A stretch of 20,243 bases of DNA from a virus. The notes beneath the pieces were generated by a model, which was not told the origin of the DNA, made no database searches, and worked only from the letters and a program-made list of their open reading frames with translations. The DNA lies in the IMG/VR virus record IMGVR_UViG_3300042934_000300, positions 1 to 20,243 of that record; one strand, written 5' to 3'. Positions 2,780-12,684 of the stretch are shown piece by piece (the stretch's first letter is position 1; each line of letters starts with the position of its first letter). Both the position numbers and the translations under genes were made by a program.

Positions 2780-2940
2780 ATATGCTTCCACCTTTCAAAT
2801 TCAATTGTTAACCCGGTTCAGTCCGGTATTATTTGTCTCATTTATTTAACGTCGTTGATACCAGCCGACGATTTTAGATATAAAAAATAAGACGTTTAAC
2901 CCAACGTCCATACTAGGGAGATAAGTGAATCACCGCCTCT
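2780..2940 (-). promoter_or_regulatory. 161-base leader of scaffold/coat genes with two hairpins
   Basis: No gene. On the minus strand there is first a hairpin GACGTTGGGTTAAACGTC (2891-2908) followed by TTATTTTTTA. Next is a second hairpin, CGTCG...CGACG (2850-2870), and then CCGG-ACTGAA-CCGG (about 2815-2826) close to the scaffold ribosome site. I could not place a convincing promoter here. Confidence 0.4.
2881..2908 (-). terminator. Intrinsic terminator-like hairpin before scaffold gene
   Basis: A perfect 6-base stem GACGTT/AACGTC with loop GGGTTA is followed on the minus strand by TTATTTTTTA. It lies 32 bases after the stop of the 82-residue gene. The stem is short and AT-containing, so moderate or partial termination is likely. 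It would lower expression of that gene relative to scaffold and coat if a promoter lies downstream, or act as a processing signal. Confidence 0.45.
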
Positions 2941-3189
2941 CTATTCTACTATATCATAGGTCTTTTCGAATATATCCGGTTTACATGGATAAAACTCACC
3001 TTGCACCCCACGAATTATGTAATCACCCATGTTTGCTTCCATAACACCTTCAATTGTTTTGATATAGAGTTTATTGCAACTTCGTCCTATTTCTTGACTT
3101 ACTAATTGCGGCAATAGCCAATCTACGCTTTCGTCTGAACCATCAAACTTTACAGCGTCAATAACAATTGGTTTCTTTCTGTATTTCAT
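2941..3189 (-). CDS. Conserved phage protein with 'GDYIIRGVQGEFYPCKPDIFEKTY' C-terminus
   Basis: 82 residues from ATG 3189. GGAGGAGGTG stands just upstream, and an in-frame GTG three codons earlier overlaps that site, so it is rejected. The protein has the well-known layout of a small protein found in many phages: a basic N-terminus KYRKKPIVIDAVKF, a variable middle, then VMEANMGDYIIRGVQGEFYPC and an acidic end. Its biochemical role is unknown. It opens the capsid gene block after two strong terminators, which suggests a separate promoter or read-through. Confidence 0.8.
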   Translation of the reverse strand: MKYRKKPIVIDAVKFDGSDESVDWLLPQLVSQEIGRSCNKLYIKTIEGVMEANMGDYIIRGVQGEFYPCKPDIFEKTYDIVE

Positions 3190-3245
3190 CCCTTTCACCT
3201 CCTCCTAGTGTTTCGGAATTCTTATAACTCTTTCCTATTAACCCA
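3190..3245 (-). promoter_or_regulatory. Possible promoter of the capsid block
   Basis: This short stretch lies between the tandem terminators and the gene starting at 3189. The minus strand contains TTATAAG and an inverted repeat CTATTGGGTTAATAG. No -35 element at a standard distance was found. The argument for a promoter is mainly positional: transcription from upstream meets two terminators. An activator-dependent or read-through arrangement is the alternative. Confidence 0.25.
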
Positions 3246-3273
3246 ATAGAAAAGCACCTACCGAAGTAGATGC
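3246..3273 (-). terminator. Strong intrinsic terminator (second of a tandem pair)
   Basis: Minus strand GCATCTAC-TTCG-GTAGGTGC has an 8-base stem (one T-G wobble) closed by a C(UUCG)G tetraloop and followed by TTTTCTATT. This is a textbook Rho-independent terminator, located 47 bases after the stop of the putative immunity gene. Confidence 0.85.
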
Positions 3274-3282
3274 CAAATTTTA

Positions 3283-3321
3283 AGTATAAAAATACCACCT
3301 ACCGTTATTATAGATGGTATT
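3283..3321 (-). terminator. Strong intrinsic terminator (first of a tandem pair)
   Basis: Minus strand AATACCATCTA pairs with TAGGTGGTATT (11 bases, one wobble) around a 9-base loop and is followed by TTTATA. It touches the stop codon of the 85-residue gene. Its TAGGTG arm resembles the arm of the next terminator, so the pair may have arisen by duplication. Confidence 0.8.
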
Positions 3322-3577
3322 ATACTTCGATTACCGAAAATATATAATCGCTGATTTTTTCAAGCCGTTTACCGATATCGTTGACTTCATAGACTTTGTC
3401 AAAGCCTATTTCCACAACAAGATCATTCAGCCATTCATATAGTTCCGCTGCGATATCTTCATCATTAATTGCAATACTATCATCCCATTCAAATACAGCA
3501 GAGGCAAGCATGGCCTGTTCATCAGTGCCAAGCAACGGGAAGAAAAAATCATAATCATCTTTTTTAATTGTCAACAT
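3320..3577 (-). CDS. Putative immunity protein to the MuF C-terminal toxin domain
   Basis: 85 residues, ATG at 3577, two bases after the stop of the MuF gene. Its AGGAGG ribosome site is formed by the last codons of the toxin domain, so translation is coupled. The protein is very acidic (21 D/E against about 6 K/R) and predicted helical (DIAAELYEWLNDLVVEIGF, NDIGKRLEKISDYIF). It has no signal peptide, membrane segment or structural-protein motif. A small acidic cytoplasmic protein directly behind a toxin-tipped gene, followed by terminators, is the usual layout of toxin/immunity pairs. I do not recognise a named immunity family. An unrelated head accessory protein is the alternative. Confidence 0.5.
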   Translation of the reverse strand: MLTIKKDDYDFFFPLLGTDEQAMLASAVFEWDDSIAINDEDIAAELYEWLNDLVVEIGFDKVYEVNDIGKRLEKISDYIFSVIEV

Positions 3578-3579
3578 CC

Positions 3580-4905
3580 TTATTGCCTCCTTTTCTTCAG
3601 GTTATTTGCATATTTTGAGCTTGTAGGGTTCACCTGAATAATTACTCCGGTATCAGGATTAATAGAAACCGTCGCTTTTTCTCCAATATACTTCTGACTA
3701 GGTAATCCATTATCGCTTATTTTTATTCTACCAGTTTTTAGTGGGTTTAGCAATGCTTCTTTCGTATTGGCTGCAGATACATTTCTTTCAATCGCTCTAT
3801 CAACCGCATGTTTTGATATATTTGTTATCTCAGTTCCATTACTTGACATGGCACCGATGATATCATTGTATTCGCTCTGGGTCTTCCCTGTAATATATTT
3901 ATCATGCCATTGATTATAAGTCATATCAGCAGGCACCGTGTAACTCTTCCCAGCAGAATCTCTTGCTACCCTAGTATCATCAGATAAATCCTCATCATCG
4001 TAATGCGGAATAGTCGTGCATCTATCAAACGCATGTAACGGAGGCATGCTCACGCCAACAATGCCCTTACCAACTTCAAACGGTTTCCCGTCTAGCTCTG
4101 CACATCGTTCGCATGTCTTCATATCGAGTGTTGCTAGCCATTGATACTTCTCAACGCCGTCTTCTGTATATGCAGCCTGTGAGCCCTGTTCGATGATAAA
4201 GGATCCTTCTGTATGCAACAACCGGTAAGCTTCATATTCCTTTGTACCAAACTTCTTCGAAAACTCACCTGCAAGTGTCTTTGGATTTCTGCCTTGGATC
4301 ATCATTGTGGTGATACTCTCGTTCAACTGCTGGAACATGTAATCCTTTTGCTTCCAGAGCCGCGTTGAGAAGTCAGCTCCATCGAACGGATACTTTATCA
4401 GCTCCTCTACAGTCTTCGCACTGACTTGAGCAAATTCTTGATGAAAACCATGATATTGATCAATATTAAACCAGGTCCGGTAATAGCTGTCGGAATATAC
4501 ATCCTTTAATGTATTCCCGACTTGATGCTCATAATCTATTGCGTACAGCTGCTGGAGAGTTGCATCAATCTGTTTCTGCAAAGCTTCATAACGCGTTATC
4601 CTCGCCCTGATGCTCATGTTATTGAGCTCCAGATTGTACTTACCCATATTTTCATAAGCTTTGTCGATAAAGTCCTGTAAATCACCTATTTCGGCTTTAC
4701 TGAGCTTTAGCTGCGCACTGGCATAGGATAACTGATTTTCCTCGGCGTATCGCCAGTAGAAGTTATTGATAACGGATTGGATTTCTCTATTGGCCTGTTC
4801 GAAGGATTTCTCTAATTCCTTGTAGTAGGAATTGATTTTCTTCTCACCGGACAGATATTTCTTTTCCTGACGCTCTTCCCAGTATTTCTTATTCGGTGTA
4901 GACAT
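3580..4905 (-). CDS. MuF-type minor head (head morphogenesis) protein with C-terminal toxin-like domain
   Basis: 441 residues, ATG at 4905 overlapping the portal stop (TAATG). Residues 1-230 are helical. Residues 229-302 form the MuF domain, with YQWLATLDMKTCERCAELDG and PPLHAFDRCTTIPHYDD (C265, C268, H291, C296). A typical minor-head tail follows to about 338 (ARDSAGKSYTVPADMTYNQW). Many relatives end there; this one continues for about 100 residues. The extra part (about 356-441) is basic and has the pattern SKHAVDRAIERNVS, QKYIGEKATVSINPDTG and IIQVNPTSSKY. This resembles RelE/colicin-like (BECR-fold) nuclease toxin domains that replace each other at the tips of polymorphic toxins. MuF proteins with toxin tips are an established group in temperate phages. 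Toxin activity here is inference. Confidence 0.85.
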   Translation of the reverse strand: MSTPNKKYWEERQEKKYLSGEKKINSYYKELEKSFEQANREIQSVINNFYWRYAEENQLSYASAQLKLSKAEIGDLQDFIDKAYENMGKYNLELNNMSIRARITRYEALQKQIDATLQQLYAIDYEHQVGNTLKDVYSDSYYRTWFNIDQYHGFHQEFAQVSAKTVEELIKYPFDGADFSTRLWKQKDYMFQQLNESITTMMIQGRNPKTLAGEFSKKFGTKEYEAYRLLHTEGSFIIEQGSQAAYTEDGVEKYQWLATLDMKTCERCAELDGKPFEVGKGIVGVSMPPLHAFDRCTTIPHYDDEDLSDDTRVARDSAGKSYTVPADMTYNQWHDKYITGKTQSEYNDIIGAMSSNGTEITNISKHAVDRAIERNVSAANTKEALLNPLKTGRIKISDNGLPSQKYIGEKATVSINPDTGVIIQVNPTSSKYANNLKKRRQ

Positions 4906-6329
4906 TATTCTTCACCGTCCTCATCATCCTCTTCATCTTCACCCAGCATCGGAACCTCTTGCGACTTAGCCTCTTTTTTTAGTCTTGCTCTTTCCGTTTT
5001 ATAGTCCTTAGTCCAAGGATGATTTTCGATGATGGTCTGCTGACTAATAACACCCATGCTGTTCTGGCAGTCAGTAATAGCCGCGCTCTCATTAATTGCG
5101 ATATCACGGTTGAATATTATGCTGACTTCTTTATCTGATACCTGTTGCCTTGTGATTTCGAGGTACTTATTAACGAAATACATCTGCTGTTCGAATGACC
5201 ACTTAAAACTGTCCTCCAATTTATTGCACTTAAGGTCTAATCCGGAATAGAGGAATTCAAGCGCAATGCCAGAAGGACTGTTGCCAAGCTTATCCTGCCC
5301 CTTATCAACCGCTTGTCCATATCTGTATATATCCTTGGCCAACTGCAGGAAGTGTTTCTCCGCTGCATCAATATTGATCGTTGGATTGAGAGTGGTAACA
5401 TCACCATCTTCATCAACCTTAATACCGTGATAATACGCAAGGTCACGCATGAACTGGCTTAAATTTTCACCACCATATCCTTTAAGCACATAGATAAGGC
5501 TCCTGAGGTCTGCTAATAGATTAGATACATCCGACCGGGTTAAATCATAATCATCTACCAGCGTCTTAACAAACTGCAGGTCCGGTAATTCGAAGTCATT
5601 ATTCTTCCACGGGACAAAAGGAACCCTGTCCCAAGTACCCGGCGCATCTTCAATAGTGAAGTACGGAGCAAGGATTTCATCGCCTTCAACATTAAGATAC
5701 ATTTCTGCATCTAGGATAACATTACCGTCTCCGTCTTTTGTGTAATATTCTACACCGTCAGGTGTATGATATTCGATTTTGGTAATATACTTCTTTGTCT
5801 TGCCCTCATAGGTTTCAACCTGATAATATCTAATCATGGCCTGCAGCTCTTCATGATCATTATCAGCCCATAGGGGAATACACTGTTCTGCAGGGATTCT
5901 CATTGACTTTTTAATTCGATCAGAACCTATGTGTTCATAACTCCACGCAATCCCCTTATTGCTGCACTCAGTGCCTAGCTGCACAAGTTTATGTTGATAC
6001 CGCTTACCGAGAGTATCCTGCACCACTTTGAGATATGTAGCATCTTCACATTCCATCGTATAAGGCTTTGAAAGCAGATAGTTCACTTTATCCTCGACAA
6101 ACTCATGCATAAACCCATGAGCCAGTTTGTGATTGGTCTTAGTTTCATCCGGTACTGGCTTCTCATTCTCGTAACGGATCATTTGCCGGTTAAGGATATC
6201 GTTCTCAACCCGGTAATAATTATCACCTTTGATCATGAGCTTGCGCTCTTTGGATGCCTCAAACTCATCGATATAGATCTTGATTAATTCCGGAGTAGTC
6301 AGCTCATTGATATTATTAATAAATTCCAC
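4905..6329 (-). CDS. Portal protein, SPP1 gp6-like
   Basis: 474 residues. I chose the GTG at 6329 because GAGGTGA precedes it by 6-7 bases; a GTG eleven codons upstream lies inside the terminase gene without a good site. The protein begins MEFINNINELTTPELIKIYI. The sequence includes the portal landmarks of the SPP1 family: HGFMHEFVEDKVNYLLSKP, an EYHTPDGVEYY region, PFVPWKNNDFELPDLQFVKTLVDDYD, and GNSPSGIALEFLYSGLDLKC near the tunnel-forming helices. An acidic tail (LGEDEEDDEDGEE) follows. It forms the 12-subunit ring through which DNA is packaged and to which the head-completion proteins attach. Terminase ends 13 bases before it. Confidence 0.92.
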   Translation of the reverse strand: MEFINNINELTTPELIKIYIDEFEASKERKLMIKGDNYYRVENDILNRQMIRYENEKPVPDETKTNHKLAHGFMHEFVEDKVNYLLSKPYTMECEDATYLKVVQDTLGKRYQHKLVQLGTECSNKGIAWSYEHIGSDRIKKSMRIPAEQCIPLWADNDHEELQAMIRYYQVETYEGKTKKYITKIEYHTPDGVEYYTKDGDGNVILDAEMYLNVEGDEILAPYFTIEDAPGTWDRVPFVPWKNNDFELPDLQFVKTLVDDYDLTRSDVSNLLADLRSLIYVLKGYGGENLSQFMRDLAYYHGIKVDEDGDVTTLNPTINIDAAEKHFLQLAKDIYRYGQAVDKGQDKLGNSPSGIALEFLYSGLDLKCNKLEDSFKWSFEQQMYFVNKYLEITRQQVSDKEVSIIFNRDIAINESAAITDCQNSMGVISQQTIIENHPWTKDYKTERARLKKEAKSQEVPMLGEDEEDDEDGEE

Positions 6330-6342
6330 GTCTCTCACCTCG

Positions 6343-7584
6343 CTATTTGAATACTTTAACACTTGCCTGCTTCATATCGTCTTCTAACGAATACCTAAGT
6401 CCATCAATCAAATGGTTATCTTTATCCACCGGGACAGGAAGCACATTGCCGTTTTTATCTTCTTTATACTTGTATTTATTTATCTCTGTTTTGAAACATT
6501 TACACCTTGGATGGACAATAATTTCAAGACCTTGTAGGAACTTAATGCCGTACTCAACGCTGCCTTGTCCCTTTTTAGCTCCCTTGGCATTAATACCTAG
6601 CGTTTTATACTCTGCAACTGACTTAGGCTCTGCGCAATCACAAGTAACTCTGTCTCTACCAGCCTTCTCTTTAACCATTGGAGCTGATTGGCTATTGAGT
6701 AAATCAACTGCCTCTATTTCATCACAGATATACAGACGTTTCCGCATCTTATCGTAATGAGACTTGATATAAGCAAATGGATCCTCAGCGAATCCCCAAT
6801 CAATACCATGACGATAGTTATCAAACGTCGGCTCAATATCGGAGAAATCTTCAACTCTCCAATTCTTAAAGATAACCGCTCCAAGAGTTCCCCAGTTACC
6901 CAAGGTATAAACCTCGTAGTAGTATTTATCTGTCTCATTCTCAAGTGCTGCTATATCATCTGGAGTAAGGAAGTGGTTGTCTTTGTATGTCGTCTTAAGA
7001 ATTGAAGTATTATCCTTCTCGATATACTGCTTATCATCTTCCCAGATACCGAAGTACTCTTCATATATCCAATGATCCTTCAATATAGGATTAAAGCTTA
7101 ATGTAAGCCGCTTAATTACCTCCGACCGCCCTCTGAGACGTTTGTCTAGCTGCTTAATATCGCTACGTTCGCACTCAGTAGCTTCCTCCACCCATATATC
7201 AGTGATAACACCTTTTTTGGGAGTAATCGACTTTACCTTTTCAACATCATCCAGACCGCAGAAAAGGATCTGCATATCATTTAGATTACAGGTGATTATC
7301 ATATCTGTTTTATTGATGTCAAAATACTCCCGGAGATTAAAGGCGTTTATGGCTTTAGTAATCTCGTTTAAGCAAGAACGCTTTATCGTTGATTGAACAT
7401 TTCTTACAACTAAGTAATTTCGTTTACCTCCCAAAACATCTAATACAGTTCTTTGGGCCAAAGAAAAAGACTTACCCGAAGATGATCCTCCAAAGTAAAT
7501 CTGATAACGGTTGTTATTATGAAATTGATATTTTAAATATATTTCATTGAATACCTTTGGATCTATATCGAGGTTAATCGCCAT
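6343..7584 (-). CDS. terL: Terminase large subunit, PBSX/SPP1-type
   Basis: 413 residues from ATG 7584 (MAINLDIDPKVFNEIYLKY), overlapping the small-subunit gene by 11 bases. An ORF start at a TTG five codons earlier is less likely. ATPase part: Walker A GGSSSGKS at residues 32-39, then VITDIWVEEATE with the Walker B and catalytic E at about 129-134. Nuclease part: GIDWGFAEDP (D262), CDCAEPKS (D316) and HLIDGLRYSL (D394), three acidic residues at the positions expected for the RNase H-like metal site. The protein pumps DNA into the procapsid and cuts the concatemer. SPP1-type terminases usually work by headful packaging from a pac site; that is family knowledge, not seen here. Confidence 0.95.
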   Translation of the reverse strand: MAINLDIDPKVFNEIYLKYQFHNNNRYQIYFGGSSSGKSFSLAQRTVLDVLGGKRNYLVVRNVQSTIKRSCLNEITKAINAFNLREYFDINKTDMIITCNLNDMQILFCGLDDVEKVKSITPKKGVITDIWVEEATECERSDIKQLDKRLRGRSEVIKRLTLSFNPILKDHWIYEEYFGIWEDDKQYIEKDNTSILKTTYKDNHFLTPDDIAALENETDKYYYEVYTLGNWGTLGAVIFKNWRVEDFSDIEPTFDNYRHGIDWGFAEDPFAYIKSHYDKMRKRLYICDEIEAVDLLNSQSAPMVKEKAGRDRVTCDCAEPKSVAEYKTLGINAKGAKKGQGSVEYGIKFLQGLEIIVHPRCKCFKTEINKYKYKEDKNGNVLPVPVDKDNHLIDGLRYSLEDDMKQASVKVFK

Positions 7585-8637: not shown

Positions 8638-9699
8638 TCAAACTGCAACGTCCGATTCTTCACTATTTTTATATACATTAATTTCAAAACATACACCCTT
8701 AACACTTCTGCCGCTTTCATAGTTTCTATGTCTATATTCATGAGGAATTATTTTTGCAATTCGAAAGTCTTTTTGTATTGCTTCCTCAGTAATTTCTTTA
8801 GCGATTGCTGCCTTTTTCCCTAATCCAAATAAATAAATAGTCTCGATTCCATCATCAATAGATTTAAATAAATGTTTTAAATAAACTTTCGTACCATTAA
8901 ATTTATATGTTATTGAGTTAGCTGTTAGGAATATACGTATTTTAAAATAGTTTCGATTAAAATAAAATTCACTAACATCTGTGACACTGCCTGTTGCAAT
9001 ATTATGTAGAAATCGCAAAAATTCGCTGGTCTCATATGTAAAACATTGATCACCAATTTCTTCAGGATATAGTTGTCTTGCTGATTTTGAATATTCATTT
9101 AAAAGTATTTGATAAAACATTCCATTACCATCAAGCGTTTTTATATCATTCAATAAATCTCTTACTTCTTCACTCTCATTTTTTAAAGGATCCAATATAT
9201 TATCATCAAAATAATCCAATGCTTCACTATCACCTTTTAAAATTATATCTCTACATACTGCTAATCTTGATGCTTTGATAATTTCTTTGTTTACATATTT
9301 TTTAGCTTTTGGTAATAATCCCACATCAACAAAAGCTGTTACGGCCGTTACAAAATTTTTATGAGGATTTGATTTATATTCTAATCGTATAATTGCTTGA
9401 TTTTTATTAATAAAAGACTCCACGCTTTCTTCTTTTACCCATTGTATTTTAAAATCAGGAATCATAACATCAACGTCAAGAGACTTTACCATTTTAGTTG
9501 CCTTTATCACTCGCCCCTTAATGGAGTTGGATACCGTTCCTTTTCTGGCTGTTTTCGATACTCCTACAAATAGCTTTTGTAAAGTCCCGGCTAACATGTA
9601 CAATTTATCTAAGTTGAATAAACATGCTATTACCACAATTAAAGCTGTTAATGGTATTCCAATAATCCCTGATATCCCCTTTATATCCTCTAAAGACAT
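8638..9699 (-). CDS. Membrane-anchored protein of unknown function (accessory/moron)
   Basis: 353 residues, ATG at 9699, two bases after the stop of the preceding small gene. The ribosome site GTGGGGGG lies in that gene's end, so translation is coupled. One hydrophobic N-terminal helix, about residues 8-30 (GISGIIGIPLTALIVVIACLF), would anchor it with the rest in the cytoplasm or outside. The remainder has a helical middle (about 115-200) and an alpha/beta C-terminus with IRIFLTANSITYKF and IAKIIPHEYRHRNYESGRS. I recognise no family. Base composition is clearly more AT-rich than in the structural genes, and terminators lie on both sides, so it looks acquired. Superinfection exclusion or defence is a guess from context. 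Confidence 0.75.
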   Translation of the reverse strand: MSLEDIKGISGIIGIPLTALIVVIACLFNLDKLYMLAGTLQKLFVGVSKTARKGTVSNSIKGRVIKATKMVKSLDVDVMIPDFKIQWVKEESVESFINKNQAIIRLEYKSNPHKNFVTAVTAFVDVGLLPKAKKYVNKEIIKASRLAVCRDIILKGDSEALDYFDDNILDPLKNESEEVRDLLNDIKTLDGNGMFYQILLNEYSKSARQLYPEEIGDQCFTYETSEFLRFLHNIATGSVTDVSEFYFNRNYFKIRIFLTANSITYKFNGTKVYLKHLFKSIDDGIETIYLFGLGKKAAIAKEITEEAIQKDFRIAKIIPHEYRHRNYESGRSVKGVCFEINVYKNSEESDVAV

Positions 9700-9701
9700 A
9701 G

Positions 9702-9929
9702 TTATCCCCCCACTCGAACAAGTAATTTATTATGACACTCACTATCTGAACACGAGAATTCAACTCTATGATCTATTGGTAAAATCGCATCAATATTAAT
9801 TAATGACATCTTTTCATTGCAATAAATGCAATTCTTATTACCACTTATTACATCGTCATAAACTTGTAGCGATTTGAGTAATTTTACTATGTCATCATCA
9901 TTAAAAGCTTTAAGCTCATTATTCTTCAT
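9702..9929 (-). CDS. Small four-cysteine (zinc-knuckle-like) protein, accessory unit
   Basis: 75 residues from ATG 9929, chosen because AAAGGTGG stands 6 bases before it; the longer frame has no ribosome site. After a helical N-terminus (MKNNELKAFNDDDIVKLLKSL) come NCIYCNEKM and, 24 residues on, FSCSDSECHNK, giving C-x2-C...C-x4-C plus a histidine that could bind one metal ion. It is translationally coupled to the membrane protein behind it, so the two probably act together. Function is not recognised. Confidence 0.7.
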   Translation of the reverse strand: MKNNELKAFNDDDIVKLLKSLQVYDDVISGNKNCIYCNEKMSLINIDAILPIDHRVEFSCSDSECHNKLLVRVGG

Positions 9930-9962
9930 TAGTGACCACCTTTCTTGCTTCCTATTTATCAT

Positions 9963-12051: not shown

Positions 12052-12240
12052 TAGTTTACTTTTAGTACTTTGTTTATTCGACAAACATTTACATTTTTTT
12101 ATATATTTGTATATTTCTTACAATCATATTTGGTATATATTTACTTGTATAATGCTGTAAAATTATGTATTATTTTGTTGTAACGTAGTCATCAATCATA
12201 TGCTCTTTTATAAGAGTCAAAAAGAAAGGTGGTAATTACA
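12052..12240 (+). promoter_or_regulatory. Leader of the secreted-protein gene with candidate -10 and small hairpin
   Basis: 189 very AT-rich bases without a gene. A TATAAT hexamer at 12148-12153 (in ACTTGTATAATGC) is a good -10 box; TTGGTA upstream is too close (12 bases) to be an ideal -35. CTCTT-TTAT-AAGAG (12203-12216) forms a hairpin just before the AAAGGTGG ribosome site, which could tune translation. Confidence 0.4.
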
Positions 12241-12684
12241 ATGAGTAAAATGTTAAAAAGAATTGCAGTACTTGTTTTTCTCGTAACACTAGTAAGTGCT
12301 CCATCTACCGCACTAGCTGCTTCTCAAGCGGTTTGTGTAGCCGATTACGGCTATTATAAGTCTTTTGAGTATCAACCATCACCTCTTGAAATACGTCCTG
12401 GCTTTTCAGCAAACTTATCAAATAATATATTTGATGGACTATTCGTAACCGCTGAAAATACTCGTTTACACGTAGCTTGCAACACCTCATTTAATGGTCA
12501 GCTTAGATATCGCATATATAGAACTACTCCAACTTTTAGTCTTGTAGTAGAAGGAATAGCTGATAACGGTTCATTCTATGCAGAAACTCCCGTATTTGCT
12601 CAATCTGGAACTTATATAATAGAGGTTACAAATATCGGAGTTCCTTTTATGTACATAGAAAATTATTCCGTTTGGTATGATTAA
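12241..12684 (+). CDS. Secreted protein of unknown function (possible lysogenic-conversion gene)
   Basis: 147 residues, ATG at 12241 with AAAGGTGG eight bases upstream. A classical signal peptide is visible: basic MSKMLKRIA, hydrophobic VLVFLVTLVSA, then cleavage probably after ALA near residue 27. The mature part of about 120 residues is beta-rich (SFEYQPSPLEIRPGF, LRYRIYRTTPTFSLVVEG, GTYIIEVTNIGVPFMYIENY) and resembles a single beta-sandwich domain without recognisable catalytic residues. It has two cysteines (VCVADYG, VACNTSF) that could pair. It has its own terminator and probably its own promoter and runs against the phage operon. Such genes are typical morons expressed from a prophage. 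Confidence 0.75.
   Translation: MSKMLKRIAVLVFLVTLVSAPSTALAASQAVCVADYGYYKSFEYQPSPLEIRPGFSANLSNNIFDGLFVTAENTRLHVACNTSFNGQLRYRIYRTTPTFSLVVEGIADNGSFYAETPVFAQSGTYIIEVTNIGVPFMYIENYSVWYD

What the first reader, a model, noticed from the sequence alone, without database searches (positions are those of the whole stretch)
3254..4905. MuF minor head protein with a toxin-like tip plus a coupled acidic immunity candidate
Seen: the MuF gene has its core (C265, C268, H291, C296) and normal linker, then about 85-100 extra residues. This tail is basic (about 14 K/R against 7 D/E) and reads SKHAVDRAIERNVS...QKYIGEKATVSINPDTG...NPTSSKY. The next gene, 2 bases on, is 85 residues with 21 acidic residues, and its ribosome site is inside the toxin codons. 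Two strong terminators close the pair. Known: MuF proteins of temperate phages can carry interchangeable toxin tips (polymorphic toxins), and BECR-fold nuclease tips share HxxxR, YIG and TG...PTS elements. Inference: the tip is an RNase-type toxin injected with or built into the virion, neutralised by the 85-residue protein in lysogens. The specific toxin/immunity pair may be undescribed.
Basis: partly seen in the sequence, partly recalled or inferred. Interest (0 to 1): 0.78.

Follow-up and report, generated by a model that had tools for sequence, protein, structure and literature searches.

The report
Phage capsid toxin tip with antidote
This phage gene makes a small head protein whose last hundred residues look like an exchangeable RNA-cutting toxin, with a matching antidote gene right behind it; the arrangement is a known one, but I found no description of this particular toxin-antidote pair.

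Summary
The 441-residue MuF minor head protein (3580-4905, minus) ends in a basic tip of about 96 residues, followed after 2 bases by an 85-residue, very acidic gene whose ribosome site lies in the tip's last codons; two terminator-like hairpins follow. The tip is an exchangeable module: relatives with the same core (64-85% identical) carry Ntox50, DUF6883, DUF4258 or unmatched tips, or none. The same tip sits on other MuF backbones and on RHS proteins of other phyla. An acidic partner gene follows it nearly everywhere; profiles built without seven loci that lack a MuF hit find 6 of 6 tips and 7 of 7 partners there. The predicted tip structure (pLDDT 94.8) resembles BECR toxins (CdiA-CT NC101, colicin E5, RelE). 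So: a MuF polymorphic toxin with a BECR-like, DUF4258-related tip and a partner family without a curated model. The kind is known (Zhang 2012; Jamet 2017; Apk2; Bxa). New here: this toxin-immunity family and sharp exchange borders, MuF residue 337 on one side, usually a terminator hairpin behind the immunity stop on the other. Toxicity, RNA target, neutralisation and injection are untested.

The parts
3895..4905 (-). MuF minor head protein core, residues 1-337 (Phage_Mu_F at residues 193-299 = 4009-4329)
   Evidence: Pfam PF04233 E 2.5e-12, TIGR01641, PHROG minor head protein 1.2e-99; next to the SPP1-type portal gene; DNA similarity to same-core, different-tip relatives ends at 3892-3905 in 8 of the 10 compared
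3583..3870 (-). toxin tip, residues 346-441, DUF4258-related BECR-like domain
   Evidence: alignment A3 of 30 tips, AF2 pLDDT 94.8, BECR matches, hhalign to DUF4258 members 96.6%
3808..3810 (-). [quoted passage not shown]
   Evidence: H 30 of 30, R370 29 of 30, R374 24 of 30 tips
3586..3594 (-). ribosome-binding sequence AAAAGGAGG of the partner gene, inside the tip codons
   Evidence: junction sequence
3320..3577 (-). 85-aa acidic immunity candidate (pI 4.05)
   Evidence: partner family A4/A6, AF2 pLDDT 95.7, partner-profile hits directly downstream of 12 of 15 new tip places and in 7 of 7 loci without a MuF hit
3291..3321 (-). first terminator-like hairpin, 3' border of the exchange cassette in most loci compared
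3253..3274 (-). second terminator-like hairpin
4905..6362 (-). portal protein gene directly upstream (context of a MuF gene)
   Evidence: PF05133 E 1.3e-78

Best explanation
A MuF-family polymorphic toxin of a (probably temperate) phage of Herbinix-like Clostridia. The N-terminal 337 residues are the structural minor head protein. The last ~96 residues are an exchangeable BECR-like domain related to DUF4258, predicted to be a metal-independent ribonuclease, most likely acting on tRNA or another translation RNA, with H366, R370/R374, K405 and T428 as the likely active-site set. The following 85-residue acidic protein binds and blocks it, so that a lysogen or producing cell is not poisoned; coupled translation (2-base gap, ribosome site in the tip codons) keeps the antidote in step with the toxin. 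The protein would be built into the head at the portal, enter the next cell with the DNA, and hinder cells lacking the antidote. Tip and antidote are exchanged together as one cassette between MuF residue 337 and the terminator hairpin behind the antidote. Shown here: architecture, exchange, adjacency, co-variation, predicted folds. Inferred: RNase activity, active site, target, neutralisation, delivery.
For: Same core, different tips: 28 loci with 64-85% identical core; by Pfam 2 of 8 scanned sibling tips are Ntox50, 1 DUF6883, 1 DUF4258, 4 without a hit; 2 of 28 end right after the linker (L073, L079) and 3 carry this tip and partner family (L062, L064, L080). Same tip on other carriers: RHS repeats in L045, L050, L055, L058 and MuF proteins L041, L047, L057. 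Partner: 62 of 62 partner ORFs that I compiled are acidic, 59-101 aa, pI 4.05-4.68 over 39 non-redundant ones. Tests on loci left out of the profiles: the partner profile hits directly downstream in 12 of 15 new Clostridia places (these partners are 26-56% identical to their best row of A4); profiles built without seven loci that show no MuF hit find 6 of 6 tips and 7 of 7 adjacent partners among their 477 ORFs. Tip and partner identities co-vary (Mantel r 0.648, 0 of 5000 permutations) and the partner diverges faster (tip more alike in 402 of 406 pairs). Fold: Foldseek best 5i4q CdiA-CT NC101 E 3.4e-3; VIA 7vd7_A Z 7.5, rmsd 2.5, 80 aligned; colicin E5 3ao9_A Z 6.1, rmsd 3.3, 75 aligned. Partner genes without a tip hit in the genome: 5 credible of 13 partner-bearing Clostridia genomes.
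Against: No experiment. Foldseek gives no match below E 1e-3, VIA Z stays below 8, and some of the matched BECR toxins (ParE) are not RNases. The S/T of BECR strand 4 is Q424 in the window; T 18, S 6, Q 6 of 30 tips. 3 of 15 new places lack a partner-profile hit (L097, L104, L106; L097 has an acidic downstream ORF that the profile does not recognise), two hits are marginal (L101, L102), and L051 has no small downstream ORF. Of the 28 same-core loci 9 show no downstream gene because the contig ends, none was listed or the frame is broken (L070, L071, L073, L078, L082, L084, L086, L087, L088). No integrase in the 20 kb window record. The tip profile finds no related solved structure by sequence.
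Confidence: 0.86

Rival explanations
1. The tip is an enzyme used by the phage on the newly infected cell (for example trimming host or phage RNA, or countering an RNA-based defence), as proposed for PBECR domains of MuF and polyvalent proteins; the partner only keeps it silent in the producing cell.
For: BECR-like fold and MuF fusion; Iyer 2017 (PMC5512222, passages read) proposes this for PBECR domains, including those fused to MuF.
Against: The same tip with a related partner occurs on RHS proteins, and partner genes occur without a tip hit, in one case type (L272, L273) beside a gene related to another tip's partner, which fits an interbacterial weapon better. The two readings are not exclusive.
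Confidence: 0.25
2. The tip is a structural extension or decayed relic without toxin activity; the small gene is an unrelated head-operon gene.
For: MuF proteins without tips occur (L073, L079); in L080 the tip has a large internal deletion.
Against: H366, N416, P417 and G420 are invariant in 30 of 30 diverse tips; tip and partner occur together on unrelated carriers.
Confidence: 0.04
3. A type II toxin-antitoxin module (RelE/DUF4258-like) captured by the phage that acts as an addiction module, the MuF fusion being incidental.
For: Profile similarity to DUF4258, which a review of the RelE/ParE superfamily lists among toxin families of type II modules (PMC11980606, passages and one section read). 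Some tips lie in short frames (L097 138 aa, L105 58 aa).
Against: In most loci the tip is the C-terminal end of a larger head or RHS protein; the partner shows no match to a known antitoxin family and its model no clear fold match.
Confidence: 0.06

Closest known systems
MuF polymorphic toxins of temperate phages (Jamet 2017, PMC5576092; Zhang 2012, PMC3482391)
   Same: MuF gene behind the portal gene, C-terminal toxin extension, small downstream ORF, Firmicutes; nuclease tips including Ntox50 and EndoU listed (sections read)
   Different: the window tip and partner reach no Pfam or NCBIfam cut-off; DUF4258 is not named in the Jamet main text (supplements not seen)
Apk2 (PMC12226406) and Bxa (PMC11699363)
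   Same: experimentally studied MuF toxins with adjacent immunity proteins, one of which binds the toxin (passages read)
   Different: (p)ppApp synthetase and ADP-ribosyltransferase tips, not an RNase; each has two immunity proteins, one of them enzymatic
CdiA-CT NC101 / CdiI (PDB 5i4q, 5i4r) and colicin E5 tRNase (3ao9, 2dfx)
   Same: among the best structural matches of the predicted tip; small toxin domain with an immunity protein
   Different: other delivery routes; 17-25% identity in the structural alignments; no sequence-profile match in the PDB
DUF4258 (PF14076), including CdiA-CT type 8 'tRNase (?)' in PMC11630599 (one passage read)
   Same: H-x-x-x-R helix and following strands; hhalign 96.6%, E 6.8e-10
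   Different: window tip scores 19.3 bits, under the 25-bit cut-off; 34 of 36 DUF4258 places lie in short open frames (48-170 aa)
PBECR domains fused to MuF (Iyer 2017, PMC5512222)
   Different: only 2 of 30 tips touch PBECR2, best E 0.06

Membership tests
MuF polymorphic toxin | N-terminal MuF domain encoded next to the portal gene | tested here: met
MuF polymorphic toxin | variable C-terminal extension on a conserved core | tested here: met
MuF polymorphic toxin | toxin domain shared with other polymorphic toxin families | tested here: met
   same tip on RHS proteins L045, L050, L055, L058
MuF polymorphic toxin | small downstream ORF of under 150 aa as immunity gene | tested here: met
   85 aa in the window
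MuF polymorphic toxin | carried by temperate phages | tested here: inconclusive
   no integrase in the 20 kb window record; tyrosine or serine recombinase in 5 of 7 related records searched, none in those of L011 and L065
MuF polymorphic toxin | toxicity, neutralisation, presence in the virion | not testable with these tools
   needs bench work
BECR fold RNases | N-terminal helix followed by a four-stranded sheet | tested here: met
   AF2 model: H20-28, H33-41, E45-51, E57-62, E66-71, E76-82, H85-95; structural matches to BECR toxins
[quoted passage not shown]
   H366, 30 of 30; helix; a common but not universal BECR feature
BECR fold RNases | S/T in strand 4 | tested here: inconclusive
   position 424 is T 18, S 6, Q 6 of 30 (Q in the window); T428 just after strand 4 is T/S in 27 of 30
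BECR fold RNases | RNase activity | not testable with these tools
   -
DUF4258 (PF14076) | score over the curated cut-off | tested here: not met
   window tip 19.3 bits against 25; 20 of 30 tips hit at E<=0.1, best 7.2e-7; the L046 genome's tip is over the cut-off
DUF4258 (PF14076) | profile homology | tested here: met
   hhalign of A3 with 16 DUF4258 members: 96.6%, E 6.8e-10; related clade, not filed as member
Ntox50 | Pfam PF15542 match and a second, C-terminal histidine | tested here: not met
   no PF15542 hit for the window at E<=1; the tip has one histidine; signature as stated in Zhang 2012 section 28
PBECR domains | Pfam match | tested here: inconclusive
   2 of 30 tips, PBECR2 best E 0.06

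The most novel reading that the evidence does not exclude
The cassette is a defined unit of exchange whose 3' border is a terminator hairpin: in lysogens the antidote gene is an insulated, moron-like transcription unit that stops at the hairpins, while in lytic growth the late transcript reads through them. The hairpin would serve both as transcription stop and as the homology that lets phages swap whole toxin-antidote cassettes.
Probability: 0.22. Interest if true: 0.6.

Novelty: new member of a known kind. Interest (0 to 1): 0.42.

Why it matters
It adds a recognisable toxin-immunity family, shared by phage heads and RHS proteins, to a system in which only Apk2, Bxa and the EFV ADP-ribosyltransferase are named as studied examples in the passages read here. 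The partner family reaches no curated cut-off in the libraries searched, so annotation does not name it. The sharp cassette borders give a handle on how phages exchange such toxins, and the MuF route makes a testable prediction: a ribonuclease delivered with phage DNA.

Tried and rejected
Promoter for the partner inside the tip gene: best sigma-70-like score in the 300 nt before the partner against upstream windows, 37 loci, mean 8.68 against 7.82, Wilcoxon p 0.25; promoter-like sites in 2800-5000 are at the shuffle level (7 against 6.5). Not supported. The window's own hit (TTGCTA-17-TAGAAT with TG) lies in codons of the conserved LLNPL stretch, so it is not independent.

Hairpin as a MuF-only signal: rejected. 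Terminators were found within 150 nt behind the partner in 15 of 26 MuF-type or unassigned short-carrier loci and in 0 of 6 of L044, L045, L048, L050, L055, L058 (grouping mine).

Partner relatives from the window sequence alone: none in phages or viral contigs; the family came out through the tip. Partner against libraries: no Pfam or NCBIfam hit, a partial PHROG match of unknown function (phrog_3154, residues 25-48, E 3.7e-4), and in A4 only scattered weak Pfam hits (DUF6511 in 3 of 31, best E 0.0021). Solved structures by sequence: best rows unrelated. Partner fold: no Foldseek match below E 1, VIA best Z 6.2, rmsd 2.8, 71 aligned, to an unrelated protein; no fold is named. Rfam: none at E<=1. 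PADLOC: none for MuF or the partner. Literature on terminators with MuF toxins: 5 papers hold all the words, none on this by its title (listing only).

Full report
What is there. The MuF gene (3580-4905, minus) follows terminase and SPP1-type portal genes and precedes a scaffold gene (Pfam) and a 326-aa ORF in the place of the capsid gene (1155-2135; capsid by position, no family call made). Predicted pI: core 5.3, tip 9.8, partner 4.05.

Source. The tip and partner are identical in a 6.4 kb contig of a Herbinix MAG (L040), so a Herbinix-like Clostridium (class Clostridia) is the likely host; a short contig can be misbinned.

The tip moves. tblastn with the tip finds 12 phage records; 9 were fetched and all 9 have a small acidic ORF behind it. 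The collection scans gave 29 viral and 21 genome loci, many Streptococcus ones nearly identical and L040 the same as the window. 49 of these 50 have a small ORF directly behind the tip or its remnant (none in L051). Carriers scanned with Pfam (10 proteins): MuF proteins (L041, L047, L057), proteins with RHS repeats (L045 Mucilaginibacter, L050 Bacteroidales, L055 Hyphomicrobiaceae, L058 Burkholderiaceae), and L044, L048, L051 without a family over its cut-off. In the other direction, 28 viral loci share the core at 64-85% and end in different ways: Ntox50 (L065, L081), DUF6883 (L076), DUF4258 (L078), tips without a Pfam hit (L061, L068, L071, L085), the present family (L062, L064, L080; E 2.7e-35 to 2.3e-16), or nothing (L073, L079). 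L061, L063, L074 and L077 look RelA/SpoT-like to my eye (recalled motif; Pfam gave no hit for L061, the one scanned).

Partner. 62 of 62 partner ORFs compiled are acidic. The alignment is weak (mean pairwise identity 0.21 against 0.40 for tips), so two tests use loci that the profiles had not seen. In 391 genomes of the class of the Herbinix genome the tip profile finds 15 genomes, the Herbinix one included; of the 15 new places the partner profile hits directly downstream in 12. Misses: L097, L104, L106, the last two weak tip hits; L101 and L102 are marginal at E 0.001-0.002. These partners are 26-56% identical to their best A4 row. Profiles rebuilt without seven loci that show no MuF hit with my MuF profiles (L044, L045, L048, L050, L055, L058, L060) find 6 of 6 tips and 7 of 7 partners, each adjacent, among 477 ORFs (L058's partner only at E 2e-4; L060 has a tip remnant, not counted). 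Partner and tip identities co-vary (r 0.648; 0 of 5000). The partner profile hits 14 of 391 genomes; 8 of these also have a tip hit, 5 have a credible partner gene without one, and one (G042, L282) is a doubtful match in a 215-aa protein next to a MinD-like gene (by eye). In two of the five (L272, L273) the gene before it is a homologue of the partner of a different tip: 37% over 75 aa to L085's partner, E 7.8e-14 (tested for L273; L272 is alike by eye), as in polyimmunity loci; one contig holds two copies (L280, L283).

Fold. AF2 gives the tip pLDDT 94.8 with the BECR order of elements. Foldseek ranks CdiA-CT NC101 first (5i4q, E 3.4e-3, probability 1.00), then colicin E5 (3ao9_B, 1.5e-2); none is below 1e-3. 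In the VIA look the first 33 rows are, by title, toxins of toxin-antitoxin, CDI or colicin systems (7vd7_A Z 7.5, rmsd 2.5, 80 aligned; 3ao9_A Z 6.1, rmsd 3.3, 75 aligned; 5i4q_A Z 5.4, rmsd 3.2, 76 aligned; also ParE, which is not an RNase), and unrelated proteins start at row 34, Z 3.8. Z below 8 can arise from common arrangements, but the list is uniform and agrees with the sequence link: 20 of 30 tips touch DUF4258 (best 7.2e-7), one RegB (0.011), two PBECR2 (0.06), besides eight other families with scattered weak hits, and hhalign against 16 DUF4258 members gives 96.6%. The partner model (pLDDT 95.7) matches nothing clearly.

Mechanism. Shown: module exchange, adjacency, co-variation, predicted folds. 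Inferred: metal-independent RNA cleavage using H366 with R370/R374, K405 and T428; tRNA as target by analogy with NC101 and colicin E5 (PMC9086364, passages read); neutralisation by blocking the active site, as that review describes for BECR CDI toxins; delivery with DNA as proposed by Zhang 2012 and Jamet 2017 (sections and passages read).

Borders. I compared the window by blastn with ten of the same-core loci that have other tips (L061, L063, L065, L068, L072, L074, L076, L077, L081, L085; near-duplicates and cut loci left out). Similarity ends at window 3892-3905 in 8 and near 4110 in 2 (L076, L081). It resumes at the hairpin directly behind the partner stop in 7 of 10: L061, L063, L065, L072, L074, L076 (80-93% over 38-81 nt) and L085 (77% over 57 nt). 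In L068 only 21 nt of the second hairpin match, about 470 nt behind the partner and after another ORF; L077 and L081 gave no blastn block there, though hairpins of similar form stand behind their partners. Tipless L079 shows none of this type in 579 nt (one locus). A promoter for the antidote was not found beyond chance.

Novelty. MuF polymorphic toxins, BECR tips on MuF and adjacent immunity genes are known. DUF4258 is listed as a CDI toxin type (PMC11630599) and called undescribed in a 2025 review (PMC11980606, section read). Papers with 'DUF4258' (8) or 'MuF toxin' (6) do not show this pair in the listings or in the passages read of five of them (PMC11980606, PMC11630599, PMC5576092, PMC12226406, PMC11699363); supplements were not open to me, so Jamet's tables may list some of these proteins. 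Hence: new member of a known kind.

Noticed in passing
window 3253-3321 (-); L061, L062, L063, L064, L065, L072, L074, L076: A similar terminator hairpin (ACCATCTATCATAACGGTAGGTGGT or close to it) lies directly behind the small gene whatever the toxin tip is; it looks like the 3' border of the exchange cassette.
   Followed up: partly
L020, L039, L056, L059, L060, L080: Tips that are broken, partial, out of frame with MuF or internally deleted while the acidic partner ORF stays open: the antidote seems to outlive the toxin (by eye).
   Followed up: partly
L272, L273, L280, L283: Partner-family genes without a tip hit; in L273 the gene before it is a homologue of another tip's partner (E 7.8e-14), and L280/L283 are two copies on one contig: polyimmunity-like.
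   Followed up: partly
L108, L109, L110: Large frames (958-1155 residues) ending in this tip with VRVTAGNIRN-type repeats; the one scanned (L108) has no Pfam match, but the corresponding loci L096, L098, L107 hit my MuF2-type profile.
   Followed up: partly
window 8638-9699 (-) and 9702-9962 (-): A 353-residue protein with a hydrophobic N-terminal segment and no clear family, with a small Cys-rich, weakly HNH-like protein beside it, between terminase and early genes: possible cargo or exclusion genes.
   Followed up: no
window 12229-12684 (+): A 151-residue protein with a signal-peptide-like start on the strand opposite to the annotated genes around it, no clear family match; moron-like.
   Followed up: no
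L068-L069 3494-4018: Another tip without a Pfam hit on the same MuF core that also has an H-x-x-x-R stretch (TDHSLNRF), followed by a 77-residue acidic ORF: possibly a further BECR-like pair.
   Followed up: no
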